This document shows, piece after piece, positions 12,335-32,181 of a stretch of 64,000 bases of DNA. The notes beneath the pieces are model-generated. The model worked only from the letters and a program-made list of their open reading frames with translations. It ran no database searches and had not been told where the DNA came from. Location of the stretch: positions 1 to 64,000 of the forward strand of contig NZ_ADFP01000086.1 of assembly GCF_000177335.1 (NCBI RefSeq). Reading direction: 5' to 3'. The DNA comes from Pyramidobacter piscolens W5455. GTDB taxonomy: Bacteria; Synergistota; Synergistia; Synergistales; Dethiosulfovibrionaceae. Every line of letters starts with the position of its first letter. The stretch's first letter is position 1. Position numbers and translations under genes: made by a program.

Positions 12335-12351
12335 TTCAAACGGGAACTTCA

Positions 12352-12447
12352 TCACGCAGGGGAGCCCGCACAGACGGGCTGGGAGGAGGCCGCGCGGCCT
12401 CGACCCTTTGAACCTGATACGGGATCATGCCGGCGAAGGAAGCGCTT
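12352..12447 (+). ncRNA. TPP riboswitch (THI element)
   Basis: The conserved blocks occur in order: GGGGAGCCC (P2/P3 arm), GGGCTGGGA, then GACCCTTTGAACCTGAT and a GGGATCATGCCGGCGAAGGAAG end block matching the pyrophosphate-sensor helix. The variable P3 stem is GGAGGCCGCGCGGCCTC. The RNA binds thiamine diphosphate. With the terminator immediately after it, it should switch off thiE-thiD when the cofactor is plentiful. Confidence 0.95.
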
Positions 12448-12451
12448 TCTG

Positions 12452-12496
12452 AAAAGGACGAGGGAGAGCCGGCACGCCGGTTTTCCCTCGTCCTTT
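12452..12496 (+). terminator. riboswitch-controlled terminator before thiE
   Basis: AAAGGACGAGGGA pairs with TCCCTCGTCCTTT around an inner GCCGGC hairpin, just downstream of the TPP aptamer and upstream of thiE. It is the expected expression platform for premature termination. Confidence 0.85.
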
Positions 12497-17309: not shown

Positions 17310-18935
17310 ATGAGAAAATTCGCTCTTGTCAACGGGAAAATCTACGTGGAACGCGGCCGCTTCGCGCAGGCGCTCTACGCCGAAGACGGCGTGATCCGCC
17401 TCGTCGGACGCAACGACGAGATCAGATCGGCCGCCGGGCGCGGCGCGGAGGTCTTCGACTGCGAAGGCCGCACGGTGATCCCCGGCCTCAACGACAGCCA
17501 CATGCACCTGCTCGGCGTCGGCATGGAGATGTCGCAGCTGCGGCTGAACGGCGCGCGCTCCGTCGGCGAGATCGTCGCGCGCGGACAACGCTTCCTCGCC
17601 GGGCATCCCGAGCTGTGCCGCCACAGCGTCGCCGGCATCGGCTGGAACCAGGACCTTTTCGACGAAGGCGAAAAGCGCCTGCCCGACCGGCACGACCTCG
17701 ACCGAATCTCCACCGACGTCCCCGTGATCGTCGAGCGCGTCTGTCGTCACATCGCCGCCGTCAACACCAAGGCCATCGAGATGCTCGGCCTGGGCAGAAA
17801 TTCACCGCAGTACGAAAACGGCGAGTTCGAACTGGAAGCGGACGGTTTCCCCAGCGGCGTCTTCAAGGAACAGGCCGTCGCCCGCGCGAACCGGCTGATC
17901 CCGCCCAAGTCGGCGGCGGAATACGAAGACATGTTCGTCAAAGCCGCCGATTACGCCGTCGCCCATGGCCTCACCAGCGTGCAGTCGAACGACGCCGGCT
18001 TCGTTCCCGTTCCCGCCGGCGCGCTGATGGAGATCGTCGATCGCGCCCACGCCGGCGGCCGCACGGCGCTGCGCTACCGCCACCAAATGACCTTCCGCGG
18101 CGTCGGCGAATTTCAGGAATTTCTGCGCGGCGGCGCGCGCGAAAAATATCACGCCCCCGCCGCCCATGTCGAGATCGGCCCGCTCAAACTCTTCAAGGAC
18201 GGCTCGCTGGGCGGCCGCAGCGCCAAAATGAGCCGCGACTACCGCGACGATCCCGGCAACCGCGGCGTGGAAACGCTTTCCAACGAAGAGATGGATCTTT
18301 TCTGCCGCGCCGCCCGCGACGCCGGCGTGCAGATCATCACCCACGCCATTGGCGACCGGGCCATCGCCGACACGGTCGCCTGTTACGAGCGCATCATGCC
18401 CATCGGAGAAAACCCGCTGCGCCACATCGTCAACCACTGCCAGATCACCGACCGACCGCTGCTCGAACGCATCGCCGCAGACGGTCTCTGCGTCGCCTAC
18501 CAGCCGATCTTCCTCGATTACGACATGCACATCGCCGACTCCCGCTGCGGCGCGGAACTGGCAAGCACGTCCTACGCCTTCGGCACGGCCGCCGCGCTCG
18601 GCATACCCGTCGGCTACGGCACCGACGCGCCGGTCGAAGACTGCAACCCGTTCCCCTGCATCGGCGCCGCCGTCACGCGCACGGACCGCCTCGGCCGGCC
18701 CGAGGGCGGCTGGTTCCCGCGGGAGAAAGTCGACGTCGAAACGGCGATCGACGCCTACACGACCGGCAGCGCTTATCTCGAGTTCCACGAGCGCGACAAG
18801 GGGCGCCTCAAGCCCGGCTTCGTCGCCGACCTGGCCGTGCTCGACCGCGACATTTTCGACTGCCCGATCGCGCAGATCCGCGAGATCCTGCCCGTGGCGA
18901 CCGTGATCGGCGGCGAGATCGTCTACCGGCGCTAA
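17310..18935 (+). CDS. YtcJ-like metal-dependent amidohydrolase (paralogue 2)
   Basis: A 541-aa paralogue of the protein at 14161-15792, with the same order of motifs: LNDSHMHLLGVGMEM, FKDGSLGGRSAKMS, HAIGDRAIADT, NHCQITDRPLLE, YDMHIADSRCG and GTDAPVEDCNPF. The zinc-site residues are intact, so it should be active. A GGAGG site precedes the ATG at 17310. The two copies differ along most of their length, which points to old duplication with different substrates rather than recent amplification. It is the last gene of the amidohydrolase-APC-amidohydrolase group. Confidence 0.88.
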   Translation: MRKFALVNGKIYVERGRFAQALYAEDGVIRLVGRNDEIRSAAGRGAEVFDCEGRTVIPGLNDSHMHLLGVGMEMSQLRLNGARSVGEIVARGQRFLAGHPELCRHSVAGIGWNQDLFDEGEKRLPDRHDLDRISTDVPVIVERVCRHIAAVNTKAIEMLGLGRNSPQYENGEFELEADGFPSGVFKEQAVARANRLIPPKSAAEYEDMFVKAADYAVAHGLTSVQSNDAGFVPVPAGALMEIVDRAHAGGRTALRYRHQMTFRGVGEFQEFLRGGAREKYHAPAAHVEIGPLKLFKDGSLGGRSAKMSRDYRDDPGNRGVETLSNEEMDLFCRAARDAGVQIITHAIGDRAIADTVACYERIMPIGENPLRHIVNHCQITDRPLLERIAADGLCVAYQPIFLDYDMHIADSRCGAELASTSYAFGTAAALGIPVGYGTDAPVEDCNPFPCIGAAVTRTDRLGRPEGGWFPREKVDVETAIDAYTTGSAYLEFHERDKGRLKPGFVADLAVLDRDIFDCPIAQIREILPVATVIGGEIVYRR

Positions 18936-19026
18936 GCCGTTTGCAAGCCGCCGCAGCCGTCGGCTCCCGGGCCGTGCCGGCGGCCGAAATCGAGGGGACG
19001 CCCGCGGGATGTTTGCGCGAAAATTC

Positions 19027-19055
19027 TTGAACAAATCGTTTTTCAGGAGTAGAGT
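19027..19055 (+). promoter_or_regulatory. candidate promoter, TSUP gene 1
   Basis: TTGAAC, 17-bp spacer, TAGAGT, 33 bp before the start codon. The same layout recurs before the second TSUP gene. Confidence 0.5.
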
Positions 19056-19088
19056 AAGCGGAAAATCACCCAGAAACGGAGACCTGCC

Positions 19089-19814
19089 ATGAATGTCCTC
19101 ACCCTCACGCTCCTGATGAGCTCCGCAGCCGCCGGCGGGATCATCAACACCGTCTGCGGCTTCGGGCTCGGCGCCGTGGCCATGTCGATCTGGCCTTACC
19201 TGATGCCCTACATGCAGTCTGTATCGGTGGTCACTCTCTGCGGGCTGACGATCGATCTGCTGCTGCTGTCCAACACGTACCGCTTCATCAGCTGGAAAAA
19301 GCTGACGCCGTGCCTGATCTGCGGGATGCTCTTTTCCAGCCTGTCGGTTTATCTTTCCGTCGGCGCCGCCGAAAAGGCGCTCGTGCGCTCGCTGGGCGTC
19401 ATCCTCATCGCTCTGGGGATCTATTCGGTGTTCTTCAGCGGACGGATCCGCATCAAGGCGTCGCCGTTCAACGGCTGCATCGCCGGCGCGCTGGCCGGCG
19501 CTTTTTCGGGGCTCTTCTCCGTCGGCGGGCCGCCGGTGGCCATATACCTCCTCGCGGGGACCGACTCCAACAGCGAATACCGCGCCACGCTGAACGCGTA
19601 CTTCTGCTTCATCAACGTCAGCACCACCTGGGCGCGCTGGCGCAACGGCATCATCACGGCGCAGGTGCTGCAGGTCTGGCTGCTGCTGGCCGGCGCCGTC
19701 GGCCTGAGCATTTTCGTCGGCAACAAAGTCTTCTATAAACTCAACGGGGCGAAGTTGCGCAAAATAGTTTACGCTTACCTGATTTTCTCCGGCGCGCTGC
19801 TGCTCTTCCGCTGA
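19089..19814 (+). CDS. TSUP (TauE/SafE) family membrane transporter, copy 1
   Basis: A 241-aa inner-membrane protein with about eight helices and the two internal TSUP repeats, each with a glycine-rich signature (GGIINTVCGFGLGAVAMS near residue 17; GALAGAFSGLFSVGGPPVAIYLL near 140). The family exports sulfite, sulfonates or sulfoacetate, or moves small organic acids such as 2-oxoacids. The substrate is not evident here. A close homologue follows 116 bp downstream with its own promoter. Confidence 0.88.
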   Translation: MNVLTLTLLMSSAAAGGIINTVCGFGLGAVAMSIWPYLMPYMQSVSVVTLCGLTIDLLLLSNTYRFISWKKLTPCLICGMLFSSLSVYLSVGAAEKALVRSLGVILIALGIYSVFFSGRIRIKASPFNGCIAGALAGAFSGLFSVGGPPVAIYLLAGTDSNSEYRATLNAYFCFINVSTTWARWRNGIITAQVLQVWLLLAGAVGLSIFVGNKVFYKLNGAKLRKIVYAYLIFSGALLLFR

Positions 19815-19829
19815 ACTTCGATCGCTGAC

Positions 19830-19864
19830 AAGGATTGCTCTGCGGAAAGCGGCCTTCGTTTTTT
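19830..19864 (+). terminator. weak terminator between the two TSUP genes
   Basis: An imperfect hairpin (AAGG-N3-GCT with AGC-N2-CCTT) followed by CG and T6 at 19859-19864. Confidence 0.35.
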
Positions 19865-19869
19865 CGCGC

Positions 19870-19898
19870 TTGAAAAGGCGCGCCGAAAAGCGTAAAGT
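19870..19898 (+). promoter_or_regulatory. candidate promoter, TSUP gene 2
   Basis: TTGAAA, 17-bp spacer, TAAAGT, 32 bp before the start codon; nearly the same as the promoter of the first TSUP gene. Confidence 0.5.
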
Positions 19899-19930
19899 GG
19901 ATACATTCCCCTTAAAAAGGAGTTTTCTTC

Positions 19931-20656
19931 ATGCCGCCTCTTACTTTCACCGCAGCCTTCTCGGTCAGCCTGGTCGGCGCGGTCATTCAGGCTGTCTGCG
20001 GTTTCGGTTATGGCCCGGTGAACATGTCGCTGCTGCCCTACCTCTTTCCCTACGCGCAGGCGGTCGCCCTCTCCGGCCTGTGTGGGTCGACGACCTCCGT
20101 TCTCGTGCTCGCTTCCAGTTTCAGACACATCCGCTGGAAGACTCTGCTGCCCTGCGTCGTCACGGCGATGATTTTCGCGCCGCTGTCGGTGCGGCTGTCC
20201 GTCGGCGCCGCCGACAAAATCATGGTCCACAGTCTCGGCGCGATGCTGATCGCGCTGGGGATCTATTCGATTTTTTTCAGCGACCGCATCCGCATCAAGC
20301 CGACATTGTTCAACGGCGCCGCCGCCGGCACGCTCGCCGGCGTCCTCTCCGGGCTTTTCGCCGTCGGCGGGCCGCCCATCGCCCTCTACATGCTGGCCGC
20401 CACCGACACCAACGATGCCTACCGCGCCACGCTGAGCGCCCAGTTCTGCATCACCGCCTGCGTCACCACGTTCGCGCGCTGGCGCAGCGGCGCCTTTACC
20501 GCCGCGACGATCCACGTCTACGTCCTCATGCTCGCCTCGCTGCTGATCGGCGCCTGGATCGGCGGCAAAATTTTCCATCGTCTCGATCCCAAGCGTTTGC
20601 GGCTGATCGTTTACGGCTATCTGATCGTTTCGGGGATCCTGATGCTTTTCAAGTGA
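19931..20656 (+). CDS. TSUP (TauE/SafE) family membrane transporter, copy 2
   Basis: A 241-aa homologue of the neighbour at 19089-19814, equal in length, with matching repeats (GAVIQAVCGFGYGPVNMS and GTLAGVLSGLFAVGGPPIALYML) and the shared block ALGIYSIFFSDRIRIKP. AAGGAG precedes the ATG at 19931. The identical length and collinear motifs indicate tandem duplication. Keeping both copies, each with a promoter, suggests split substrates or heteromeric use. A bidirectional terminator separates it from the convergent M20 genes. Confidence 0.88.
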   Translation: MPPLTFTAAFSVSLVGAVIQAVCGFGYGPVNMSLLPYLFPYAQAVALSGLCGSTTSVLVLASSFRHIRWKTLLPCVVTAMIFAPLSVRLSVGAADKIMVHSLGAMLIALGIYSIFFSDRIRIKPTLFNGAAAGTLAGVLSGLFAVGGPPIALYMLAATDTNDAYRATLSAQFCITACVTTFARWRSGAFTAATIHVYVLMLASLLIGAWIGGKIFHRLDPKRLRLIVYGYLIVSGILMLFK

Positions 20657-20797: not shown

Positions 20798-21988
20798 TCA
20801 GCGGCCGTGGCGCGCCAGCCACATGATCGCGCTGCCGGCGGCCATGGCGGTTCCGCGCCAGAGGATGCCGTCGTCGATCTCGAAACGCGGGCTGTGCTGC
20901 GGCGTGGGGCCGTGGGACGAGGGCGTGTACATGAGCAGGAAGGTGCCGGGACCTTTGAGCAGATAGCCGGCAAAATCCTCGCCGCCCGTGGTGGGCAGCG
21001 GCACGCGCAGGAAGGCTTCGTCGCCGAAAAGCTCGCGCCCGATGGCGACGACTTCTGCGGTGGCTTCGGGGTCGTTGACGAGGTTGGCGGCCCCGCGCGT
21101 CCAGACCAGTTCGGCTTTCGCTCCCGACGCTTCGGCGATCAGCTCCGCCATTTTCCTCATGCGCTCTTTGATGCGGCAGCGTTCCTCCTCGGAAAGGGCG
21201 CGTGCCGTGCCGCTCAGCACGCAGGTCTCGGGGATGATGTTGAAAGCCGCGCCGGGCGTGCGCACCTTGCAGACCGACAGGACCATCGGCTTCGTGGCGC
21301 TCTGTTCGCGGCTGACGAGGCTCTGCCAGGCGTCGATGACGCGGGCGGCGATCAGCACGGGATCGACGGCCAGCGACGGGAACGCGCCGTGTCCTCCCTT
21401 GCCGGCGATCGTGCACTGCCAGCTGTCGAGGAAGGACATAAACGCGCCGGGGTAATAGCCGAACGTGCCCGCCGGCCAGTCGTGCGGCGCGATCGAACCG
21501 GCGTGAAGGCCGACGATGAAATCGGTGTGGGGATTTTCCAGGCAGCCGTCGGCGATCATGGCGTTGGCGCCGTTGCCGGTCTCCTCGCCGGGCTGAAAGA
21601 GGATCTTCACCGTGCCGTTCAGTTCGTCTTTGCGTTTCATCAGCAGAGATGCCGCGCCCAGCGCCATGGCGGTGTGCGCGTCGTGGCCGCAGGCGTGCAT
21701 GCAGCCGTTTTTCGAGGCGTAGTCCACCGGCGTCTGCTCCACGACGGGCAGGCCGTCGCAGTCGGCGCGCCAGGTGAAGCACTTGCCGGGGCGGCCTTCG
21801 ATCAGGGCGACGACGCCGTGGCCGCCCACGCCCTTGCGGTACGGTACGCCGAGCGAGTCGAGCGCCTTGCAGATGTAGGCTTCGGTCTGGGGCGTTTCCA
21901 GCCCCAGCTCGGGGAACTGGTGCAGCTCGCGCCGCCAGGCGACGATCTGGGAACTGAGCTCTTTCGCTTCGTCGAGGATCGTTTTCAT
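20798..21988 (-). CDS. M20-family amidohydrolase/aminoacylase (paralogue 1)
   Basis: A 396-aa zinc-dependent hydrolase of the hippurate hydrolase/N-acyl-L-amino-acid amidohydrolase group (AbgB/HipO-like). Visible marks are RRELHQFPELGLETP, the metal motif CMHACGHDAHTAMALG, PGEETGNGANAMI (catalytic Glu and metal Glu), the lid domain with LSGTARA, and PTTGGEDFAGYL. Such enzymes release amino acids from N-acyl or amide conjugates. A GGATCG-type ribosome site is weak; the ATG at 21988 is nearly adjacent to the stop of the upstream paralogue, so they form one unit. Confidence 0.92.
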   Translation of the reverse strand: MKTILDEAKELSSQIVAWRRELHQFPELGLETPQTEAYICKALDSLGVPYRKGVGGHGVVALIEGRPGKCFTWRADCDGLPVVEQTPVDYASKNGCMHACGHDAHTAMALGAASLLMKRKDELNGTVKILFQPGEETGNGANAMIADGCLENPHTDFIVGLHAGSIAPHDWPAGTFGYYPGAFMSFLDSWQCTIAGKGGHGAFPSLAVDPVLIAARVIDAWQSLVSREQSATKPMVLSVCKVRTPGAAFNIIPETCVLSGTARALSEEERCRIKERMRKMAELIAEASGAKAELVWTRGAANLVNDPEATAEVVAIGRELFGDEAFLRVPLPTTGGEDFAGYLLKGPGTFLLMYTPSSHGPTPQHSPRFEIDDGILWRGTAMAAGSAIMWLARHGR

Positions 21989-21989
21989 G

Positions 21990-23183
21990 TCATTCGCCCT
22001 CTTTTGCGGAACGGCCGAGCGCCAGCGCCGCGAACAGCGCCGCGCCGCGCCACAGCCAGCGGTCGTTGATGCGGAAATGGCAGTTGTGCATGTTGTACGC
22101 GGGCCCGTCGGGCGGCGGCACGACGAGGAACGCCATGGCGCCGGGAATATGTTCCGTATAAAAGGCGAAATCGTCGCCGGCCAGCATCGGCTCGTTCACG
22201 AACAGCGCGTTTTCGTCGCCGAACAGCGCCGCCGCCGTCTTTTGCGCCGCGCCGATGACCCGTTCGTCGTTCAGCAGCGGCGGCGCGCCGCGCGTGTACT
22301 TCACGTCGGCTTTCACGCCCATGCTTTCCGCCGTGAGGCGGGCGATCTCGCCCAGGCGCCGCTCGATCAGGTCGCGCGTCTGCGGCCACAGCGTGCGCGC
22401 CGTGCCCACCAGACGGGCCGTCTCGGGGATGACGTTGGCGGTCTCGCCGGCCTCGAACTGGCACACCGAAACGACCGACGGGCACATCGGGCAGGCGTTG
22501 CGGCTGACGATCGTCTGCAGTCCGGTGACGATCCGTCCCGCCGCCACGACGGGATCGCGCGACAGCTCCGGGATCGCGCCGTGGCTGCCCTTGCCGGTCA
22601 GGTCGATCTCGAACTTGTCCATGCAGGCCAGCGCCGCGCCCTTGATGAAATGGAAGGAGCCGGCTTTTTTGTTTTCGCCCGACCCCATCGACACGTGGAT
22701 CGCGAACGCCGCGGCGGGAGCGGGATCTTCGAGACAGCCGCCGGCCATCATCGCCCGCGCGCCCGCGCCGATCTCCTCGGCGGGCTGGAACAGCACCTTG
22801 ACCGCGCCGTCCAGTTCGCCGCGGCGGGCCAGCAGCAGCTTGACCGCGCCCAGCCCCATGGCGCTGTGGGCGTCGTGCCCGCAGGCGTGCATGTTTTCGT
22901 TGCGCGACGAAAACGCCTCGCCCGATTCTTCGCGGATCGGCAGGCCGTCGCAGTCGCAGCGGAACATCAGGCATTTGCCCGGCCGCGCTCCCCTGACCAC
23001 GGCGACGACGCCGTGGCCGCCCACGCCGCGTCGGTATTCGGCCCCCATGGCGTCGAGCTGGCGGCACAGGTATTCTTCCGTCCGCGGCGTTTCCAGCCCC
23101 ACTTCGGGAAAGGCGTGAAGCTCGCGCCGCCAGCCGCGGATCAGCTCCTGAAGCGCTTCGGCGTCCTTTACGACAGAGTTCAT
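21990..23183 (-). CDS. M20-family amidohydrolase/aminoacylase (paralogue 2)
   Basis: A 397-aa paralogue of the next gene downstream, with RRELHAFPEVGLETPRTEEY, NMHACGHDAHSAMGLG, QPAEEIGAGARAMM and MLAGDDFAFY in the same places. All metal and catalytic residues are present. The ATG at 23183 is 8 bp from AAAGGA; a longer form from 23192 would lack a ribosome site. It ends 1 bp before the next M20 start, so translation is coupled. Upstream in the same direction lies the two-gene DUF5058-type membrane system, suggesting that the transported compound is the hydrolase substrate. Confidence 0.92.
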   Translation of the reverse strand: MNSVVKDAEALQELIRGWRRELHAFPEVGLETPRTEEYLCRQLDAMGAEYRRGVGGHGVVAVVRGARPGKCLMFRCDCDGLPIREESGEAFSSRNENMHACGHDAHSAMGLGAVKLLLARRGELDGAVKVLFQPAEEIGAGARAMMAGGCLEDPAPAAAFAIHVSMGSGENKKAGSFHFIKGAALACMDKFEIDLTGKGSHGAIPELSRDPVVAAGRIVTGLQTIVSRNACPMCPSVVSVCQFEAGETANVIPETARLVGTARTLWPQTRDLIERRLGEIARLTAESMGVKADVKYTRGAPPLLNDERVIGAAQKTAAALFGDENALFVNEPMLAGDDFAFYTEHIPGAMAFLVVPPPDGPAYNMHNCHFRINDRWLWRGAALFAALALGRSAKEGE

Positions 23184-23250
23184 TGCGCACATCCTTTCTT
23201 TTTTCCATAAAATTCCGCCTGCCCTGAAGCGGACAGGCGGAACGGCGAAT

Positions 23251-23934
23251 TTACTTCTTGATAACGCCGGCCTTGTAAAGCACGCGGGCCGCCGCGATCG
23301 TGCCGAAGACCGCGCCGAGGATCAGCGTCGCCGGATGCTGCAGCGCCGGCCTGCCGCTGGCGAAGAGCAGCCCGGGGATGCCGATGCCGGAGACGGCCAG
23401 CAGCGGTTCCTTGATGACGCAGGAAACGAACATGGCGCCGAAGACGGCCGGCACGGCGCAGCTTTTGAACGCGGCGACGATGCCCGCGGGAAGCACGGAG
23501 AGCACCGACGCGCCCGCCAGCGCCGCGAGCGTGACGAAGAACAGATTGACGACCACCGATCCCGTCAATCCCACGGTGGAAACGATCAGCGCCTCGGGCG
23601 AACCGCTCTCGGTGCCGACGGCTTCCTGAGCCGCCGCCGAGCAGGGCACGCGCAGATTGCCGATGTTGCCCGTCAGAAAAGCGATGTAGATGCCCACCTC
23701 GCCAAGCACGGGGAAGTAGGAGATCGGTTCGATGAAGTACACGGCGCCGCAGATGGAAACGATCATCAGCCAGGCCTGGAACGCCGCGCCCCAGCCGGGC
23801 CACGCGCCGTGAACGAAGTACAAATAAAGATTCGGGAAGAAGCAGGCCGCGATCACGATCCACAGCGTCGTCACGCCGATGCCGCGGGCCGGACGGTTCC
23901 ACACGCCGCCGAAAGCCGAAAGTTTGTCAGACAT
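23251..23934 (-). CDS. integral membrane protein, partner of the DUF5058 protein
   Basis: A 227-aa protein with about six hydrophobic segments (WIVIAACFFPNLYLYFVHG, AWLMIVSICGAVYFIEP, GIYIAFLTGNIGNLR, VNLFFVTLAALAGASVLSVL and others) and a conserved-looking centre, FLTGNIGNLRVPCSAAAQE. I do not recognise a named family beyond its regular pairing with DUF5058. It lies 24 bp downstream of the DUF5058 gene and 67 bp upstream of the M20 pair. It is likely the second subunit of a small-molecule carrier; this is inferred from context. Confidence 0.7.
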   Translation of the reverse strand: MSDKLSAFGGVWNRPARGIGVTTLWIVIAACFFPNLYLYFVHGAWPGWGAAFQAWLMIVSICGAVYFIEPISYFPVLGEVGIYIAFLTGNIGNLRVPCSAAAQEAVGTESGSPEALIVSTVGLTGSVVVNLFFVTLAALAGASVLSVLPAGIVAAFKSCAVPAVFGAMFVSCVIKEPLLAVSGIGIPGLLFASGRPALQHPATLILGAVFGTIAAARVLYKAGVIKK

Positions 23935-23958
23935 GAGTTTTTCCCTCTCTTCCTGCGA

Positions 23959-24705
23959 TCAAAAGAACGCGGCCACGATCATGCCGGCCAGCATGGCCAG
24001 ACCGAGATTGTACTCGCGCAGCTTGGGACGCTTCTTCGACACGCGGATCAGGACCGCCATGGCGATGCCGGCGGCGATCGTGGCGACCATCGGCTGCAGC
24101 GGGACCATGCCCGAGCCGCCCGCGGCGAGCGCCTTTTTGTAATTGCGCAGAGCCTTGCCGATCGTGTCGGCGCTGAGATACCCGTAGCAGCCCGTCGTCG
24201 CCGCCACGGCGATGAGCACCAGCCAGCGGGCGTCGCCGCCGCCGAACTTGGCGCGCACCTTCTCCAGATGGGGCGTCAGCACCGCGGCCACGACCAGCCA
24301 GCCGATGCCGTTGACGGCCATCGTCCACCACGAGGCGGCCAGCGCGTTCAGATCGTACTGGGGCGAGTTGAGCTCCACGCCGTACGCCTGGGCGCCCAGC
24401 ATCGCGCCCGTCATCTCGATCGGCGCCGAGCCGATGATCGAGCAGCGCAGCCACGCGATCGGCGCGCCCACCGCGCTGATCAGGCCGACCATGACGAGGA
24501 ACACCGCGAACGACGGCCCCACCGAAGAGACCGCGCCCGTCCACAATCCCTTGTACACGTTGCGGCGTTCGAAACCGATCGCGTCCGCGGCCTTCAGCGA
24601 CAGGCGGATGTAGAGCAGCGACTGGATCAGCGCCACCGCCACGACGATAAAGCACAGGAACCACACCACCGCGTTGTTCGCAACTTGAAAAACTTCCTGC
24701 GGCAT
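23959..24705 (-). CDS. DUF5058-family membrane protein (putative carrier subunit)
   Basis: A 248-aa protein with about six helices. The order FQVANNAVVWFLC, SLLYIRLSLKAADAIG, SSVGPSFAVFLVMVGLISAVGAPIAWLRCSIIGSA and LNALAASWWTMAVNGIGW agrees with my recollection of DUF5058. That family occurs in anaerobic Firmicutes and Synergistota beside M20 or other amidases. The ATG at 24705 is preferred over the TTG at 24708 because GGGAGG lies upstream. With its partner and the two M20 enzymes it forms a four-gene leftward unit. No substrate is known. Confidence 0.7.
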   Translation of the reverse strand: MPQEVFQVANNAVVWFLCFIVVAVALIQSLLYIRLSLKAADAIGFERRNVYKGLWTGAVSSVGPSFAVFLVMVGLISAVGAPIAWLRCSIIGSAPIEMTGAMLGAQAYGVELNSPQYDLNALAASWWTMAVNGIGWLVVAAVLTPHLEKVRAKFGGGDARWLVLIAVAATTGCYGYLSADTIGKALRNYKKALAAGGSGMVPLQPMVATIAAGIAMAVLIRVSKKRPKLREYNLGLAMLAGMIVAAFF

Positions 24706-24732
24706 CAAAAAGCCTCCCCCACAAATAAAAAT

Positions 24733-24785
24733 GATAATGATCTCCGCGGGCGAAAGTGTGACTTTCGCCCGCGGAGATCATTATC
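24733..24785 (-). terminator. terminator of the pucR-like gene
   Basis: A 24-bp perfect stem (24733-24756 with 24762-24785); on the minus strand ATTTTTATTTGT follows. It lies about 100 bp past the regulator stop and also insulates the DUF5058 unit. Confidence 0.75.
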
Positions 24786-24886
24786 GTCTTCCCCGTTTTC
24801 CTTTTCATCGTCCGAGCGCGACGAAAAAGAAGCATAAAATTTAAATATTTCGTTCTCGAATCAAATATCCGGGGACAAATGAACTG

Positions 24887-26509
24887 TCAGGACAAAGATT
24901 CGCCGCCGAAATCGTCCATTTGTTTCAGCTTGATCGCCAGTTCCACGCAGAAACGGCTTTCGCTGCTGGAAAAATCGTCGCTCAGCAGCGAACAGATCTT
25001 TCCCCAGCGGTACTTGAGCGTGTTGTAATGAAGCGCCAGCGCCGCGGCGCTCTTTTTCACGCTCCAGTTGCAGGCGACCATCGTCTCCAGCGTGCGCAGC
25101 AGCGGCTCTTCCTTTCTCGCCGCGTCGAAACGGAGCAGCGGCCCCAGCCTCGCTTCGACGAACTCCCGCGCCGCCGGTTCCCGCAGCGCCGCGCCGAGCA
25201 CGCGCGGCGCGCCCATGCGGTCCCACCAGGCGACGCGGTTGCCGCCGGACGTCCGCCGCGCCAGTTCCAGCGCCATGCGCGCCTGATTGTAGCCCTTCCA
25301 GCAGAGGAACACGTCGCCGCAGCGGCCGCCGACGCCCACGGTGACGGAAAAACCCGTCTGTTCCACGATCTGCTCCATCATCGGCGTCAAAATGCGTTCC
25401 AACTGGCGCTGCTCTTCCTCGAAAATTCCCCGCGAGGAAAGGATAAACGCCGCCGAATCGCTCATCTCGGCAAACGGGACGCGCCTGCCCATGCGGCCGA
25501 TGAACTCGCGGCAGACGGCGAAGATGCGCGCCTTCGACTCCTCCAGAGCGGCCGGCCCCTGTCCGGCGGCCATGGCGCGGGTGAGGCGGTTCTTGTAGTC
25601 GTCGATGTCGCAGACCACGACCTTCTTGGCGCCGGCCAGATCCCAGCCGAAAGAGCGCGAGCGGTTCCAGACCTCGTCCTTGAGGCGCAGATTGTTCATG
25701 AGGATGTCCATGACGAACTCGTTGCGGTAGCGCCGCTCCACCTGCGCGCCCGAGCTCCAGCGCTGGAAGAACAGCAGCAGCGCGCCCTTGGCCTGCGTGA
25801 CGGGGATCTCGCTCCATGGCTCGCGCAGGCGTTCGGGGGAAGCGTCGAAGACGAGCCAGGCGGAAACGTTCTCGCCGCAGAGAGAAATTTTCTCCCACGG
25901 ATAACGTTTCAGCACTTCGGGAAGCGGCAGCGACGCCAGCGCTTCCCGAAAAGGCCCCTCGTCGGCGCAGACGCGGTCGAAAGAACTTTCCGTACAGCGC
26001 AGCGCCAGATCGAGATGAGTGAAGCTGCGCAACGTTTCCAACAGATCCTCGAGGCTCGCGCACTGCACGTTCAGGTCGAAGAAAGCCTTCTGCACCGTTC
26101 CCGAATAGCGGAGCAGATGCGCCTGATCGCTGATCACGCGCGACTGCACGGGATGAAGGATCTCCGCGAACGGCATTTCCAGCGGAATGGAGATCAGCGG
26201 GAAGCCGAGCGCCTCCGCCAGATCGAGAGCCTGCCGCGGCAGCTCGCCGAGGTAACGCCCCAGCTTGATCCCCAAAGCGGCGTTGCCCGACTCGCAGCAG
26301 CCGCGGATCAAACGCTCCACGCTTTCCAGGTCGCGGAACGGATAGCCAGAGGTGATCACGAACTCGCCGCCCTGCGACCATTTATAACAGTCGGGCGCGT
26401 CCCCCACCGTCGTGCGCAGCACTTCGCGCCCCAGCCCGCCGGCTCCGGCCAGCAGGCGAAAACCCTTGAACTCGGGCATGTTGAGAATGTCCCGCACGGT
26501 TACAGCCAT
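24887..26509 (-). CDS. PucR/CdaR-type transcriptional regulator
   Basis: A 540-aa regulator. The N-terminal PucR domain (about residues 1-120: TVRDILNMPEFKGFRLLAG...GEFVITSGYPF...LGFPLISIP) is followed by a linker and a GGDEF-like middle region (VTVGVGGRCGDVFLCWKGYNQARMALELA), and then the C-terminal HTH_30 domain (LLRTLETMVACNWSVKKSAAALALHYNTLKYRWGKI). PucR proteins usually activate purine, amino-acid or amide catabolic genes in response to a ligand. The position, just upstream of the DUF5058/M20 unit on the same strand, makes that unit the likely target. The ATG at 26509 is chosen because GGGGG lies 7 bp before it. Confidence 0.88.
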   Translation of the reverse strand: MAVTVRDILNMPEFKGFRLLAGAGGLGREVLRTTVGDAPDCYKWSQGGEFVITSGYPFRDLESVERLIRGCCESGNAALGIKLGRYLGELPRQALDLAEALGFPLISIPLEMPFAEILHPVQSRVISDQAHLLRYSGTVQKAFFDLNVQCASLEDLLETLRSFTHLDLALRCTESSFDRVCADEGPFREALASLPLPEVLKRYPWEKISLCGENVSAWLVFDASPERLREPWSEIPVTQAKGALLLFFQRWSSGAQVERRYRNEFVMDILMNNLRLKDEVWNRSRSFGWDLAGAKKVVVCDIDDYKNRLTRAMAAGQGPAALEESKARIFAVCREFIGRMGRRVPFAEMSDSAAFILSSRGIFEEEQRQLERILTPMMEQIVEQTGFSVTVGVGGRCGDVFLCWKGYNQARMALELARRTSGGNRVAWWDRMGAPRVLGAALREPAAREFVEARLGPLLRFDAARKEEPLLRTLETMVACNWSVKKSAAALALHYNTLKYRWGKICSLLSDDFSSSESRFCVELAIKLKQMDDFGGESLS

Positions 26510-26531
26510 TTCCATCCCCCCGACCGCCGGC

Positions 26532-27760: not shown

Positions 27761-29023
27761 TTATTCCGCGGCGAAGACGTGGACGGCGTTGCCGCTGGGA
27801 ATCAGGATCGAGGTGCCGCCCGTTCCCGACTGTTCCTGCAGCCACATCTCGGCCGACTGCATGTCGCGGAAAACCTGCCCGGGAAAAGGCACGTTCTCGC
27901 GCGAAGTCACCAGCGCCGCGGGACGCCCGCGCAGTTCCAGCACGGCGCGCAGGGCGATGTATCCGGGGATCGTGAACGCCGTTTCCATGCGGCGCACAAA
28001 GGCCGGCGCATCGTGCAGCGAACTGCGCAGCGACGCTTCGAAATCGCCGGGGCCGAGACTGTCTTCCAGATCGGCGACGAGCACGATCGGCGCCCCGGGC
28101 TCCAGGGCCGACAGCGGCGAAAACAGCGCCTTGGTGGCCTGGTAAAGGTCGAGGTCCAGCGGGAAGCCGCCGCAGGAAGAGACGGCGCGCGCCGCTTTGC
28201 GCGGGATCCACAGCGAAGCGAAGGAGCGGCACGTCTCGCAGCCCGTCTCCCACGCTTTCCAGACGTCGCCGGCCACCCACGCCGCCGGTTGCCCTGCGCC
28301 GTCGGCGATCGTGTTGAGGATAAAGCACTTTTTGCCGCGCAGCGCCAGATCGGCGTAAGCGCGCTGATCCTGCGCCATCGGGTTGCGTTCCAGCAGGCCG
28401 CTGTCTGTGGCGGGATTCAACCCGCCGTCCTTGAGGCAGTGGTTGTGGTTCTTGACGATCGAAAGGCGTCCGGAAACGCCGGGCATGATCATCTTGCGCC
28501 CGCCCGAAAAGCCGGCCATATCGTGGAACGCGATGCCGCCCACCAGCACCGCCAAGTCGGCGGCGACGAAGGCCGAATCGAGCGTGACCGGCGTGCCCAG
28601 CGGCGTGACCAAGCCCGTGTCCACGACTTCTTCGCAGCTGTGGCTGTGCCAGCGGTCGCCTGACATCATCGCGCCGCCGAAGACCAGTTCTTTGTCCCGT
28701 TCCTCCACGGCGCGGTGCTGCCCCGTGCCCACGATCCACGTCACTTCGGCCGTCTTGTTGACGGCGAGGCGCTTTCTTACCGCCGCGCTCATCTCGGGGG
28801 CGCGGCACCAGCCGCGCGTGACGTCGGGCACGACGATGGCGATGCGGCGGGCGTCTTTCGCCAGATCCTCCAGCGCGGGAGAAGCGATGGGGCGGTCAAG
28901 CGCTTCCTCGACGGAGCATGACGCGCCGCACAGGCCGCGGCCGCGCGGCTGCGGGACGATATAGTCATACGGGCTCTGCCAGCGCTGCACGCCGCGGCCC
29001 ATTTTCACCTCGTAAGTTTTCAT
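27761..29023 (-). CDS. larA: LarA-type nickel-pincer racemase/epimerase
   Basis: A 420-aa cytoplasmic enzyme of the lactate racemase family (LarA_N, DUF2088). Seen are IAIVVPDVTRGWCRAPEM (equivalent of the DDxTRP loop), WIVGTGQHR with the His of the TGxHR motif, and GFSGGRKMIMPGVSGR, which has the lysine that carries the nickel-pincer cofactor in characterised LarA. Many LarA homologues act on 2-hydroxyacids other than lactate, so the substrate is uncertain. No larB, larC or larE maturation genes and no lactate permease are nearby. It is monocistronic, with a good promoter and a terminator. Confidence 0.85.
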   Translation of the reverse strand: MKTYEVKMGRGVQRWQSPYDYIVPQPRGRGLCGASCSVEEALDRPIASPALEDLAKDARRIAIVVPDVTRGWCRAPEMSAAVRKRLAVNKTAEVTWIVGTGQHRAVEERDKELVFGGAMMSGDRWHSHSCEEVVDTGLVTPLGTPVTLDSAFVAADLAVLVGGIAFHDMAGFSGGRKMIMPGVSGRLSIVKNHNHCLKDGGLNPATDSGLLERNPMAQDQRAYADLALRGKKCFILNTIADGAGQPAAWVAGDVWKAWETGCETCRSFASLWIPRKAARAVSSCGGFPLDLDLYQATKALFSPLSALEPGAPIVLVADLEDSLGPGDFEASLRSSLHDAPAFVRRMETAFTIPGYIALRAVLELRGRPAALVTSRENVPFPGQVFRDMQSAEMWLQEQSGTGGTSILIPSGNAVHVFAAE

Positions 29024-29370: not shown

Positions 29371-30198
29371 TTAGCGGCGACGGTTCCAATCGCACGTCGC
29401 GTATTTATTTTCGATCAGATCCTCCGCCAACGAAAGCTCGTCGTCAGTCAAGTCGTCTTCCACGAAATGAGCGTCCAGATCGCGCTCCAACGCGATGAAG
29501 AAGCCTTCTTTAAACGCGTCAAAGAGCTCGTTCCACGGAAGCGGGCGGCCAATGAGATGGCGTATGCTCGTCGCTTTTTCAAGAAACGTCGCCTTGGCCC
29601 GTTCCAATCTCTGAGGTTTTTCGTCCTTCATGGTTGCAAAAAGCATCTCTGGATTCAGGTCGTTGAGCACTGAACCATGCTGGAGCACGGAGCCAAAGCG
29701 ACGGGCTTGGGCGCTCCCAACAATTTTTTTGCCGTCCGCTTCAAGCTCCCAGACCGAAAGGGCGTCGAAGCAGGCCGCGGAACTTCCCAGTTTACCGCTT
29801 CGCGGCGCCGGACGACTCATCGTTACGGGCAAATTGAGTATCCGAAAGCCTTCGGCCAGTCCTCTGGAGAGCACGCGATACGAGTCAGTGATGCTGTCAG
29901 GCAGCGGGCAGCCCTCATGAGGCATAATGATGCTGTAGGTCAACTCTTGGTCGTGGAGAACGGCGCGGCCGCCGGTGAGACGGCGCACGACGTCGATGCC
30001 GAGATGGGCGCAGGCGTCGAAGTTCACGTCGCGTTCGGCCTTTTGAAAATACCCCAGCGTGAGCGCAGGCGGCGCCCAACGGTAAAAACGGAGAGTCGGC
30101 GGCACGCGTCCGGCGGCACAGCAGGTCATAACGGCCTCGTCGATCGCCATGTTCCACGCGCCCGAATGGATTTTTGTATCAATGAATCGCCATTTCAT
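29371..30198 (-). CDS. lipM: LipM-type octanoyl/lipoyl-protein transferase
   Basis: A 275-aa cytoplasmic enzyme of the biotin/lipoate ligase fold. Seen are the lipoate-fold motif VVRRLTGGRAVLHDQELTYS (about 71-88), a candidate catalytic cysteine in SSAACFDALSVWE (Cys143), where LipM carries its acyl-thioester cysteine, and the lysine motif KKIVGSAQARR. LipM moves octanoate from acyl carrier protein to GcvH or an E2 lipoyl domain. LplA-type lipoate ligase is the alternative, but the ACFD motif favours LipM. The start overlaps the end of the upstream radical-SAM gene by 20 bp, showing tight coupling with lipoyl synthesis. Confidence 0.82.
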   Translation of the reverse strand: MKWRFIDTKIHSGAWNMAIDEAVMTCCAAGRVPPTLRFYRWAPPALTLGYFQKAERDVNFDACAHLGIDVVRRLTGGRAVLHDQELTYSIIMPHEGCPLPDSITDSYRVLSRGLAEGFRILNLPVTMSRPAPRSGKLGSSAACFDALSVWELEADGKKIVGSAQARRFGSVLQHGSVLNDLNPEMLFATMKDEKPQRLERAKATFLEKATSIRHLIGRPLPWNELFDAFKEGFFIALERDLDAHFVEDDLTDDELSLAEDLIENKYATCDWNRRR

Positions 30199-31216
30199 GA
30201 GGGCACCTCCTTGTTTCCCCGTCGGTGGCGGGGGCCAGATCGTTCAGGTCTGTCTGAGCAAACAAACGCGTTTCTTTCAAGGCGTGGATGACCTCTGAGT
30301 TTTTCAGCGGGCGAGGGTAGTTGTACATCACGCCGTGTCCGGGATTTTCGTTGTAGTAAGGACGGTTGCAGTCGCGGCATCCCGCCGTCTCAAACGCCTC
30401 GCCGGAGGATAGGACTGATAGCAGTTCTTTCATGTCTCCGTCAATGCCAGTGAGTTTCCCATTCGAAAAAGACATGTCGGAAACGCGCCGGCGTTTCGTT
30501 TTGATCAGCCAGTTTGCCAGCTGAACGCGACGGTAGCGGCCGGCCTCAGGGGGCGGGCACTTCGCCATGCGCGTGCCGCGCAGAGGCGTGAAGGCGAAAA
30601 GCCCCACGGTGACATTCAGGTCGTGCATGTTTTGTATCGCGGCGATCACGTCTTCCTCCGACTCTCCAAGGCCGACGATGAAGTGCGTGGTGATTCGTCC
30701 GGGGTAGCGCCTCGCGCATTCGGTCAGGAGTTGGACCTTGCGAGCGTAGCCCGTGCCTTTCACCTGATCATGAAGGGATTGAGTGGCGGCGTCAAGCGCA
30801 ATGCTTACTCGCGCCGCCTCGTTTCCCATCAGCTGATCAACCTGACTGGCAGAGGTGATATTGGTCGAGACGCTGACGGGGAGCGCTACTGCGTTCGTCA
30901 CGGCTTTGAGAATAACGAGGGTGCGCTCAAAGGAACCGGCGTTCAGGGTAACCTGAATGCACGCACGGCGAACAGTCCCGCGTCGAGCGGCGGTGATAAG
31001 GCCGCTGAGGACGTCTTCCAAGTCATAAACCGGCCAGATAACCCTTGAGAGATAATCTTCTCCCGTTTCGGCCTCTCGCGCCTGAGCGCAGAACGCGCAA
31101 TTATGCGCGCATCTGCCGCCCGTATCCATCAGATACGCTGTGGTGGGAAGCGCGTCGGATTTAAGACGCGCAAGACCAAGAACAGCTGCGGTGCCGATTG
31201 ACAGACGTATCTTCAC
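30179..31216 (-). CDS. radical-SAM lipoyl synthase subunit (LipS1/LipS2-like, A)
   Basis: A 345-aa radical-SAM protein. The SAM-cluster motif is CAHNCAFCAQA (Cx3Cx2C) near the N-terminus, followed by TIM-barrel segments (ACIQVTLNAG, STNITSASQVD, TTHFIVGLGESEEDV, FAFTPLRGTRMA). Near the C-terminus is a second cysteine set (GCRDCNRPYY), consistent with an auxiliary Fe-S cluster. It resembles the biotin-synthase-related halves of the split lipoyl synthase LipS1/LipS2 described in archaea and anaerobes. The start is taken as the GTG at 31216, whose GTGA overlaps the upstream stop; a GTG at 31228 is also open. Which of LipS1 or LipS2 this is cannot be settled by eye. Confidence 0.72.
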   Translation of the reverse strand: MKIRLSIGTAAVLGLARLKSDALPTTAYLMDTGGRCAHNCAFCAQAREAETGEDYLSRVIWPVYDLEDVLSGLITAARRGTVRRACIQVTLNAGSFERTLVILKAVTNAVALPVSVSTNITSASQVDQLMGNEAARVSIALDAATQSLHDQVKGTGYARKVQLLTECARRYPGRITTHFIVGLGESEEDVIAAIQNMHDLNVTVGLFAFTPLRGTRMAKCPPPEAGRYRRVQLANWLIKTKRRRVSDMSFSNGKLTGIDGDMKELLSVLSSGEAFETAGCRDCNRPYYNENPGHGVMYNYPRPLKNSEVIHALKETRLFAQTDLNDLAPATDGETRRCPHEMAIH

Positions 31217-32112
31217 AATACGCAGCACTCCTTCCGGTCAATGAGCTTAAGGCCGAGCGAGCGCGCCAGGCGCAGCGCCGGCGGCGTGGGGTTCACAAGA
31301 CGGTTGAGACCGCTGGCGACGGCAAGCGTGTCAAGTTCGGCTCTGTAGCGTCCTGCCGGACGCATGCATCCAAGATTGATCGATTGGCGCGGGAACAGTT
31401 CCCGCGCGCGGGCAAAGACGTTCGCGACATCCTCAAGCGGAGGCGGCTGGCGGTCGGCAAAAGCCGTGCCGGGGGTCGGTATGAGAACGATAAAGACCAG
31501 CGCGTCAGCGCCAAGTTCGGCGAGCACGCGCAGCGCGTCGTACTCGCCACGCACCTGACCGCCCCAGAGGCCGACGCAAATGTGAGGGACGACCCGGGCT
31601 CCAGCGGCGCGCAGCCGGCGATAAGTATCAATATAATCATCTCCGGTACGCGTCAGACCAAATACATCACGGATAGTCCGATTGTCAGTCACCATATCGA
31701 ATGAGATCCGATCGGCGAGCGGCGCTAAAACGTCGATCTCGGCCTGGCTGATGAGGCCGGCGTGCACGTTGATTTTCAGCCCGCGGCTCTTAAGCCGCAT
31801 TACGAGTTCTTCCTGGCGGGCGACTTCAACCTTGCCGGCCGGCGTGCATCCGCCCGAAAGGAGACAGCTGGTATAGCGCCCCGTCGCGAGAGCCGCTTCA
31901 ATTTTTTCAATTGGAGTCATCCCCTCGAGGTAGTGCCCACCGCAGTGAGCGCAGTTGAGAGCGCACTTCGCGCCTGTAAGCGAAACGGCGAGCGTGGAGC
32001 CGGGACGATCGCAGATCAGCTGCGGCGGAAAATGCGAGCGGGCCGTGTTCCAAGCGCGCTCGACCGCGGCCCTTGCTTTTAGCGAAAGTCTTGTCAATTC
32101 GTCGGCGGTCAT
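31213..32112 (-). CDS. radical-SAM lipoyl synthase subunit (LipS1/LipS2-like, B)
   Basis: A 299-aa radical-SAM protein. The cluster motif is CALNCAHCGGHYLEGM, followed by CLLSGGCTPAGKVEV, GLKINVHAGLIS, RISFDMVTDN, VVPHICVGLWGG, VFIVLIPTPGTAF and a C-terminal CMRPAGRYRAELD. It ends with paired cysteines (RKECCVL) that could help bind an auxiliary cluster. It is the expected partner of the next gene in a two-protein lipoyl synthase that inserts sulfur at C6 and C8 of octanoyl-lysine. The ATG at 32112 follows AAAGGA by 9 bp. A TATAAT on the minus strand (32162-32157) lies 20 bp from the edge of MITE copy C and may be its promoter. Confidence 0.72.
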   Translation of the reverse strand: MTADELTRLSLKARAAVERAWNTARSHFPPQLICDRPGSTLAVSLTGAKCALNCAHCGGHYLEGMTPIEKIEAALATGRYTSCLLSGGCTPAGKVEVARQEELVMRLKSRGLKINVHAGLISQAEIDVLAPLADRISFDMVTDNRTIRDVFGLTRTGDDYIDTYRRLRAAGARVVPHICVGLWGGQVRGEYDALRVLAELGADALVFIVLIPTPGTAFADRQPPPLEDVANVFARARELFPRQSINLGCMRPAGRYRAELDTLAVASGLNRLVNPTPPALRLARSLGLKLIDRKECCVL

Positions 32113-32181
32113 GGCGGCGTTCCTTTCAGTCACATCTCTGCAGAAACATTTTATTTATTATAGCACGGCGGCTCTCTTCTC

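What the first reader, a model, noticed from the sequence alone, without database searches (positions are those of the whole stretch)
20798..26509. PucR regulator, DUF5058 two-gene carrier and two M20 hydrolases
Gene order on one strand is pucR-like, DUF5058, partner membrane protein, M20, M20. The two membrane proteins are of similar size and always close to amidases in what I recall, which suggests a two-component uptake system for conjugated amino acids, with cytoplasmic release by M20 enzymes.
Basis: inference. Interest (0 to 1): 0.5.

Follow-up and report, generated by a model that had tools for sequence, protein, structure and literature searches.

The report
Two-gene amide-nutrient importer with hydrolases
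A gut-type anaerobe carries an operon whose two small membrane proteins, of unknown function, are found as a pair and usually next to enzymes that cut amide bonds, so they probably form an unrecognised importer for amino acids that carry an attached group.

Summary
In detail: on the minus strand lie pucR, DUF5058 (PF16481), an unnamed membrane protein and two M20D amidohydrolases. In 149 Synergistota genomes DUF5058 and the partner occur in the same 53; in 398 Bacillota genomes all 31 with DUF5058 over the cut-off have the partner, and the one extra partner is cut at a contig end. The pair is adjacent in 111 of 112 fetched regions. The two phylogenies match (r 0.94), while the neighbouring M20 is exchanged (r 0.45). 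M20 lies beside the pair in 57/80 and 25/32 regions. Elsewhere other hydrolases stand there: amidase, amidohydrolases, C45, M81, M19, M42, an N-carbamoylsarcosine-amidase-like enzyme. In Tissierellia the last sits near sarcosine-reductase-type genes, which hints at the substrate class. Lysine/arginine distribution puts the two proteins in opposite membrane orientations. Best reading: an obligate two-subunit carrier that imports N-acyl or N-carbamoyl amino acids for release in the cytoplasm. Transport, direction and substrate are unproven. PucR is not a constant part. No paper in the held library names DUF5058 or PF16481.

The parts
24887..26515 (-). PucR-family transcriptional regulator, 542 aa (PucR N-terminal, GGDEF-like, HTH_30)
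   Evidence: PF07905 107.1 bits, PF13556 55.3, PF17853 41.5, all over cut-off
24733..24785 (-). perfect inverted repeat, 25-bp arms and 3-base loop, T-rich tail: terminator- or attenuator-like hairpin between pucR and DUF5058
   Evidence: folded; terminator-like, 20 pairs counted; a related, imperfect hairpin lies upstream of the orthologues in L035 (the same contig as L199, by its length) and L193
23959..24705 (-). DUF5058 membrane protein, 248 aa; about six hydrophobic segments, K/R pattern N-out/C-out; conserved WxRLSxIGAAxTELxA segment (R87, E97)
   Evidence: 207.9 bits, cut-off 28.2; model pLDDT 85.9
23251..23934 (-). partner membrane protein, 227 aa, no Pfam or NCBIfam family; K/R pattern N-in/C-in; conserved EPISYY...GNIGNMRVPCA segment (E69, N90, N93, R95)
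   Evidence: no family at E 0.001; only scattered weak matches at E up to 1; co-occurrence; model pLDDT 87.1
21990..23192 (-). M20D amidohydrolase 1, 400 aa (or 397 from ATG 23183), no signal peptide seen by eye; HACGHD and PAEE motifs present
   Evidence: TIGR01891 288.4 bits, cut-off 153.75; closest solved: YxeP 1ysj, IAA-amino acid hydrolase 1xmb, 4ewt, acyl-glutamine aminoacylase 6slf
20798..21988 (-). M20D amidohydrolase 2, 396 aa, no signal peptide seen by eye; HACGHD and PGEE motifs present
   Evidence: (TIGR01891 289.2 bits)

Best explanation
DUF5058 and its partner are the two subunits of one membrane carrier, lying in the membrane in opposite orientations. It imports amino acids whose amino group is blocked by an acyl, aminoacyl or carbamoyl group. 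A hydrolase encoded next to the carrier and left in the cytoplasm (here two M20D amidohydrolases) then cuts the amide bond and feeds the amino acid into fermentation; here a PucR-type regulator probably senses the substrate. Shown by computation: obligate pairing, adjacency to hydrolases, no evident signal peptide on the window's two M20s, opposite charge bias. Inferred: that the pair transports, that it imports, the substrate class, and the driving force (ion-coupled or exchange, since none of the five proteins is an ATPase or binding protein).
For: Pairing: DUF5058 and partner in the same 53 of 149 Synergistota genomes and in all 31 of 398 Bacillota genomes over the cut-off; same-strand adjacent in 32/32 and 79/80 regions and in 79 of the 80 best loci. 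Mirror trees on 82 loci: DUF5058-partner r 0.94, DUF5058-M20 r 0.45, partner-M20 r 0.39, bootstrap difference 0.37 to 0.62. Hydrolases: M20 in 57/80 and 25/32, five and one of the misses having under 1.8 kb downstream, against 31 M20 matches (29 over cut-off) in this 2.56-Mb genome; M20 domain density about 0.353 per kb in the first 2 kb downstream, 0.00 to 0.04 per kb in the bins beyond 4 kb. M20-free loci carry PF01425 amidase, PF07969, PF01979, C45, M81, M19, M42 or isochorismatase-family enzymes, with at least 13 M20/other changes on the tree. Substrate pointer: the isochorismatase-family neighbour in L089 is closest to N-carbamoylsarcosine amidohydrolase among solved proteins (1nba, 1.5e-63), and L083, L089 and L111 carry glycine/sarcosine/betaine-reductase genes (GrdG of L083 over the sarcosine model's cut-off). 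Opposite topology: K/R excess in predicted cytoplasmic loops in 127/129 DUF5058 and 133/133 partner sequences.
Against: No transport measurement exists here. The 80 best loci are a similarity-ranked sample (80 of 132). The hydrolase list beyond M20 and amidase was drawn up after seeing the misses. Five regions with enough sequence on both sides have no listed hydrolase (L123, L136, L147 in Bacillota; L204, L213 in Synergistota); the genes after the partner in L136 and L147 are PGA_cap and LysR. No resemblance to a known carrier by sequence or fold was found. A GrdG-like cluster occurs in only 5 of 80 loci, and the two isochorismatase-family proteins scanned score far below every NCBIfam cut-off. 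Other transporter genes lie near some loci: an ABC-ATPase-like cluster (by eye from L102) in 8 of 80 at scattered positions, and a sodium-symporter-like gene (by eye) beside the grd genes of L089.
Confidence: 0.7

Rival explanations
1. The pair is an exchanger or exporter: it swaps the incoming conjugate for a product, or expels the released acid or amine, while another system brings the substrate in.
For: Fermenting anaerobes often use substrate/product exchange (general knowledge). Neither direction nor ion coupling can be read from sequence; none of the operon's five proteins is an ATPase or binding protein. An ABC-ATPase-like cluster lies near 8 of 80 loci, at scattered positions (family by eye from L102).
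Against: The leaving groups of the neighbouring hydrolase families should differ widely, which a product exporter would have to follow. Among the recurrent neighbour clusters looked at (clusters 4-18 by eye) I saw no other transporter at a fixed position; rarer neighbours were not examined.
Confidence: 0.13
2. The pair imports free amino acids or another nutrient of the same pathway, and the hydrolases are neighbours only because they share a catabolic regulon.
For: grd genes beside some loci would also suit import of sarcosine or glycine themselves.
Against: The hydrolase is the usual neighbour and grd genes are rare (GrdG-like cluster in 5 of 80 loci). In L089 a sodium-symporter-like gene (by eye) already stands next to the grd genes. 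The shared feature of the swapped enzymes is bond hydrolysis, not one amino acid.
Confidence: 0.1
3. The two proteins are not a carrier: they form a membrane anchor, sensor or enzyme that works with the hydrolase.
For: No known carrier fold or family was matched.
Against: About six hydrophobic segments each, strongly conserved polar and Gly/Pro-rich stretches among them, no evident soluble domain in either, and unrelated hydrolases beside the same pair, which a dedicated enzyme partner would not allow easily.
Confidence: 0.06

Closest known systems
abg system of E. coli (AbgT importer with M20D hydrolase AbgA/AbgB)
   Same: An importer encoded beside two hydrolase subunits that cleave the imported amide (p-aminobenzoyl-glutamate); AbgT imports PABA-Glu (PMC5082436, passages read). 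The window also has two adjacent M20D genes; an aminobenzoyl-glutamate utilization protein (3io1) is among their PDB matches.
   Different: AbgT is a single larger protein of another family (recalled); the window's two membrane proteins give no AbgT match in Pfam. The E. coli regulator also differs (recalled: LysR type).
DUF5058 (Pfam PF16481)
   Same: The first membrane protein is a clear member (207.9 bits).
   Different: Pfam gives no function, and the constant partner has no Pfam or NCBIfam family.
N-carbamoylsarcosine / sarcosine reductase route of creatinine and N-methylhydantoin fermenters
   Same: In some Tissierellia and Clostridium loci the pair lies beside an N-carbamoylsarcosine-amidase-like gene and near grdF/grdG-type genes, enzymes of the route described in PMC4417704 and PMC5364220 (both read whole).
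   Different: Neither paper names a transporter for this route; the window itself has M20D enzymes instead.
YjiG/YjiH two-gene membrane pair beside the isoaspartyl dipeptidase gene in E. coli (recalled, not from a call)
   Same: Two small membrane proteins encoded beside an amide-cleaving dipeptidase.
   Different: No Gate-domain match (PF07670, recalled) for the window proteins in Pfam; no sequence relation shown.

Membership tests
DUF5058 (PF16481) | score over the curated cut-off of 28.2 bits over the whole profile | tested here: met
   207.9 bits, profile 1-222 of 222
M20D amidohydrolase subfamily (TIGR01891) | score over 153.75 bits | tested here: met
   288.4 and 289.2 bits
M20D amidohydrolase subfamily (TIGR01891) | hydrolysis of an N-acyl amino acid or related amide | not testable with these tools
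   needs an enzyme assay
Carboxypeptidase CpsA (NF040868) | score over 500 bits | tested here: not met
   271.8 and 324.6 bits
PucR-family regulator | PucR N-terminal domain and C-terminal HTH_30 over cut-off | tested here: met
   107.1 and 55.3 bits
AbgT transporter family | match of the window's membrane proteins to an AbgT profile in Pfam | tested here: not met
   the window DUF5058 and partner proteins list no AbgT match (member 1); for other members of A2 only 25 of 40 families were shown
ABC importer | ATPase and binding-protein genes in the operon | tested here: not met
   Pfam of the operon's five proteins shows none
Carrier with inverted structural repeats (here split in two genes) | halves in opposite topology | tested here: met
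   by charge bias only: opposite in 127/129 DUF5058 and 133/133 partner sequences, on loop limits that I chose from the models and hydropathy
Carrier with inverted structural repeats (here split in two genes) | halves homologous to each other | tested here: inconclusive
   hhalign probability 1.8% and 1.5% on larger alignments, score 19.9 against at most 19.0 in 30 block shuffles and 12.6 reversed; circular shifts score higher, up to 27.6, still under 13% probability
Carrier with inverted structural repeats (here split in two genes) | same fold as a solved carrier | tested here: inconclusive
   no Foldseek match at E 0.001 or better; best VIA Z 4.8 and 4.7
Carrier with inverted structural repeats (here split in two genes) | transport activity | not testable with these tools
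   needs uptake assays

The most novel reading that the evidence does not exclude
DUF5058 and its partner found a new superfamily of secondary carriers: an obligate heteromer whose two six-helix halves sit upside-down to each other, each with a conserved Arg-bearing segment reaching in from opposite sides (R87/E97 and R95). They import N-acyl and N-carbamoyl amino acids, and evolution has repeatedly swapped the cytoplasmic amide hydrolase while keeping the carrier. In one lineage the carrier feeds N-carbamoylsarcosine into sarcosine reductase, which would give the missing importer of creatinine-derived nutrients in anaerobes.
Probability: 0.4. Interest if true: 0.75.

Novelty: new variant of a known kind. 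Interest (0 to 1): 0.55.

Why it matters
It turns one DUF and one nameless protein family, found in 53 of 149 sampled Synergistota and 31 of 398 sampled genomes of one Bacillota phylum, into a testable transporter hypothesis. It also gives a handle on how gut and sludge anaerobes take up blocked amino acids (N-acyl, N-carbamoyl, dipeptide-like), a nutrient class whose importers are, to my knowledge, mostly unknown. A two-subunit carrier with opposite topologies would be of interest for transporter evolution.

Tried and rejected
Structure: AlphaFold models of both proteins are confident, but Foldseek against the PDB gave nothing at E 0.001 or better and the VIA second look gave only Z 4.8 and 4.7 on part of each model. 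This does not show a new fold. PDB sequence search gave one chance-level match for DUF5058 (E 0.9) and none for the partner.

Homology between the two subunits: looked for because their helix order is alike; hhalign does not support it. A circularly permuted alignment scored higher but pairs charged loops at 13% identity and is not claimed.

Viral contigs: no relative, with a single-protein query that finds close relatives only. Gene fusion of the two subunits: none among those of the 80 loci in which both were located. Rfam at gathering thresholds gives no element in the operon. A riboswitch or attenuator reading of the hairpin was not pursued.

Rows dropped: L146 (broken DUF5058 gene, partner still adjacent) and L148 (G376, partner cut at the contig end) from the region counts; sequences outside length limits before one search's totals, then those at 90% identity or more (184 to 129 and 182 to 133); eight unlabelled rows in the change count. 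L219, a DUF5058 fragment, is the one region without a partner; L213 has the order reversed. Some M20 domain hits are pieces of one gene, so densities count domains and are approximate.

Literature: 'DUF5058' and 'PF16481' give 0 papers; two wider searches gave nothing on point (listings only). Searches were used to find the precedent papers.
Full report
Observation. Pfam and NCBIfam place the first as a PucR-family regulator, the second as DUF5058 (Pfam only), and the last two as M20D amidohydrolases; the partner membrane protein matches no family at E 0.001, and at E up to 1 the 71 partner proteins of alignment A3 give only scattered weak matches, the best DUF554 at 0.0021 in one member. DUF5058, partner, M20 and M20 are separated by 24, 58 and 1 bases; a perfect 25-bp hairpin with a T-rich tail lies between pucR and DUF5058, so the last four genes look like the operon and pucR like a separately terminated neighbour (inference).

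Same genome. There are three DUF5058 genes in the 2.56-Mb assembly. Each has the partner next to it: PucR-DUF5058-partner-M20 on C43, amidase-DUF5058-partner on C23, and the window copy. The closest named contig is from Pyramidobacter sp. C12-8 (L035, 97% identity), so the window is probably from that genus.

Does DUF5058 occur without the partner? A profile of the partner was built from 71 sequences. In a draw of 149 Synergistota genomes, DUF5058 occurs in 53 and the partner in 53, and the two lists of handles are the same. In a draw of 398 genomes of the phylum of L080 (Acidaminobacter; called Bacillota here), DUF5058 occurs in 31 over the cut-off (33 at E 0.001), the partner in 32: the same 31 plus G376, where the partner is cut off by the contig end. 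I scanned 114 regions (111 fetched for these hits, three of the own genome); 112 hold a DUF5058 gene by the local profile, and 111 of these have the partner on the same strand within 400 bases. The exception is a gene fragment (L219). In the 80 loci most similar to the window protein (80 of 132 found) the partner follows in 79; the other contig ends 109 bases further on.

Do they evolve together? In 82 loci with all three genes, tree distances of DUF5058 and partner correlate at 0.94, those of DUF5058 and the neighbouring M20 at 0.45, partner and M20 at 0.39. The carrier pair is inherited as a unit; the hydrolase much less so.

Hydrolases. An M20 gene lies on the same strand beside the pair in 57 of 80 Synergistota and 25 of 32 Bacillota regions; five and one of the misses have under 1.8 kb of downstream sequence. 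This genome has 31 M20 matches, 29 over cut-off, in 2.56 Mb, so about 0.02 would be expected in a 3.5-kb same-strand stretch (my arithmetic). M20 domain density is about 0.353 per kb in the first 2 kb downstream, 0.123 in the next 2 kb, 0.103 in the 2 kb upstream, and 0.00 to 0.04 per kb in the bins beyond 4 kb. Where M20 is missing, the neighbour is often another hydrolase: PF01425 amidase (615 bits to PRK07486, cut-off 465), PF07969 enzymes that resemble N-acyl-D-amino-acid deacylases (that name is my recall), PF01979 enzymes nearest Xaa-Pro dipeptidase but under its cut-off, C45 acyltransferase/hydrolase, M81/MlrC, M19 dipeptidase, M42, isochorismatase family, ATC hydrolase. With these counted, 74/80 and 28/32 regions have such a neighbour, and 74 of the 80 best loci, whose six misses are all at cut contigs. 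The list was made after seeing the misses, so these totals are descriptive. Five regions with enough flanking sequence have none (L123, L136, L147, L204, L213). On a tree of 119 pairs the M20/other state changes at least 13 times (FastTree, many weak forks, eight unlabelled rows left out).

A substrate pointer. In L083, L084 and L111 (Tissierellia), L089 (Clostridium sp. Cult2) and L104 (Fretibacterium) the gene before DUF5058 belongs to one isochorismatase-family cluster. The one from L089 is closest to N-carbamoylsarcosine amidohydrolase among solved proteins (1nba, E 1.5e-63). The NCBIfam scores of the L083 and L089 proteins are low, best biuret hydrolase far below cut-off, so the assignment is likely, not certain. 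In L083, L089 and L111 genes for glycine/sarcosine/betaine reductase component B are nearby; the GrdG of L083 passes the sarcosine model's cut-off (854 against 780 bits), while its GrdF stops at 349 residues of 435 with 669 of 800 bits, as expected if a selenocysteine UGA ends the frame (the UGA reading is inference). In L094 an M20 gene stands before the grd genes and, by eye, another after them. N-carbamoylsarcosine is an amino acid with a carbamoyl-blocked nitrogen, the same broad class as M20D substrates. N-methylhydantoin and creatinine fermenters carry N-carbamoylsarcosine amidohydrolase and sarcosine reductase genes (PMC4417704, PMC5364220, both read whole); neither text names a transporter. 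A GrdG-like cluster is near only 5 of the 80 loci.

Anatomy. Both membrane proteins have about six hydrophobic segments (by eye on hydropathy and model helices) and confident models. Positive charges sit after segments 1, 3 and 5 in DUF5058, and at the ends and after segments 2 and 4 in the partner, in 127 of 129 and 133 of 133 sequences, so the two should lie in opposite orientations. Between segments 2 and 3 each has a strongly conserved stretch, WxRLSxIGAAxTELxA in DUF5058 (R87 and E97 at 99%) and GNIGNMRVPCA in the partner (N90 95%, N93 92%, R95 81%). These would face opposite sides of the membrane, as re-entrant segments of inverted-repeat carriers do (inference). Sequence does not show the two halves to be homologous.

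Mechanism. The two M20D proteins of the window show no signal peptide by eye, so their substrate must reach the cytoplasm. None of the operon's five proteins is an ATPase or binding protein. The simplest account is a two-subunit secondary carrier that brings in N-blocked amino acids, which cytoplasmic hydrolases then free for fermentation. The closest working precedent is E. coli AbgT with AbgA/AbgB (PMC5082436, passages). The window's DUF5058 and partner proteins give no AbgT match in Pfam, so it would work like that system without belonging to it. The closest solved relatives of the two M20s include YxeP, a plant IAA-amino acid hydrolase and an N-acyl-glutamine aminoacylase.

What remains open. 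Transport itself, direction, coupling and substrate are untested. PucR is an occasional neighbour (21/80 and 7/32), not part of the core. Other transporter genes occur near some loci, such as an ABC-ATPase-like cluster in 8 of 80 at scattered positions (family by eye). The window copy sits on a long branch (0.78), so its substrate may differ from that of the Tissierellia copies.

Novelty. No paper in the held library contains DUF5058 or PF16481; subscription papers and databases such as TCDB were not searched. I rate it a new variant of a known kind: an importer-plus-amidase operon with an unrecognised, obligately two-gene carrier.

Noticed in passing
window 29371-32133, - strand: LipS2-family lipoyl synthase (354.9 bits, cut-off 270) between a lipoate-protein-ligase-like gene and a second radical-SAM-like ORF (31213-32133), probably LipS1 (not tested).
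   Followed up: partly
window 24733-24785: Perfect 25-bp inverted repeat upstream of DUF5058; a related imperfect hairpin recurs in orthologous leaders (L035, which is the L199 contig, and L193).
   Followed up: partly
window 17310-20656, + strand: Amidohydro_3 enzyme followed by two tandem TauE/SafE-type membrane proteins, convergent with the M20 genes.
   Followed up: no
window 27761-29023, - strand: Nickel-pincer (LarA-type) racemase homologue, nearest LarAH10 but well under its cut-off (263 of 540 bits).
   Followed up: no
window 12348-12458, + strand: TPP riboswitch (57 bits).
   Followed up: no
L213 (G028:C27:13606-24289): The only region of 112 with the order partner-DUF5058 reversed; it has no listed hydrolase and is followed by two similar membrane proteins that look like alanine:cation symporters (by eye).
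   Followed up: no
L054, L072, L073, L074, L076, L077, L086, L087, L094, L096: A YajC-like small protein (name by eye) recurs a few genes downstream in 10 of the 80 loci.
   Followed up: no
L089:3919-5253: A sodium:neurotransmitter-symporter-like gene (by eye) between the grd genes and the regulator upstream of DUF5058.
   Followed up: no
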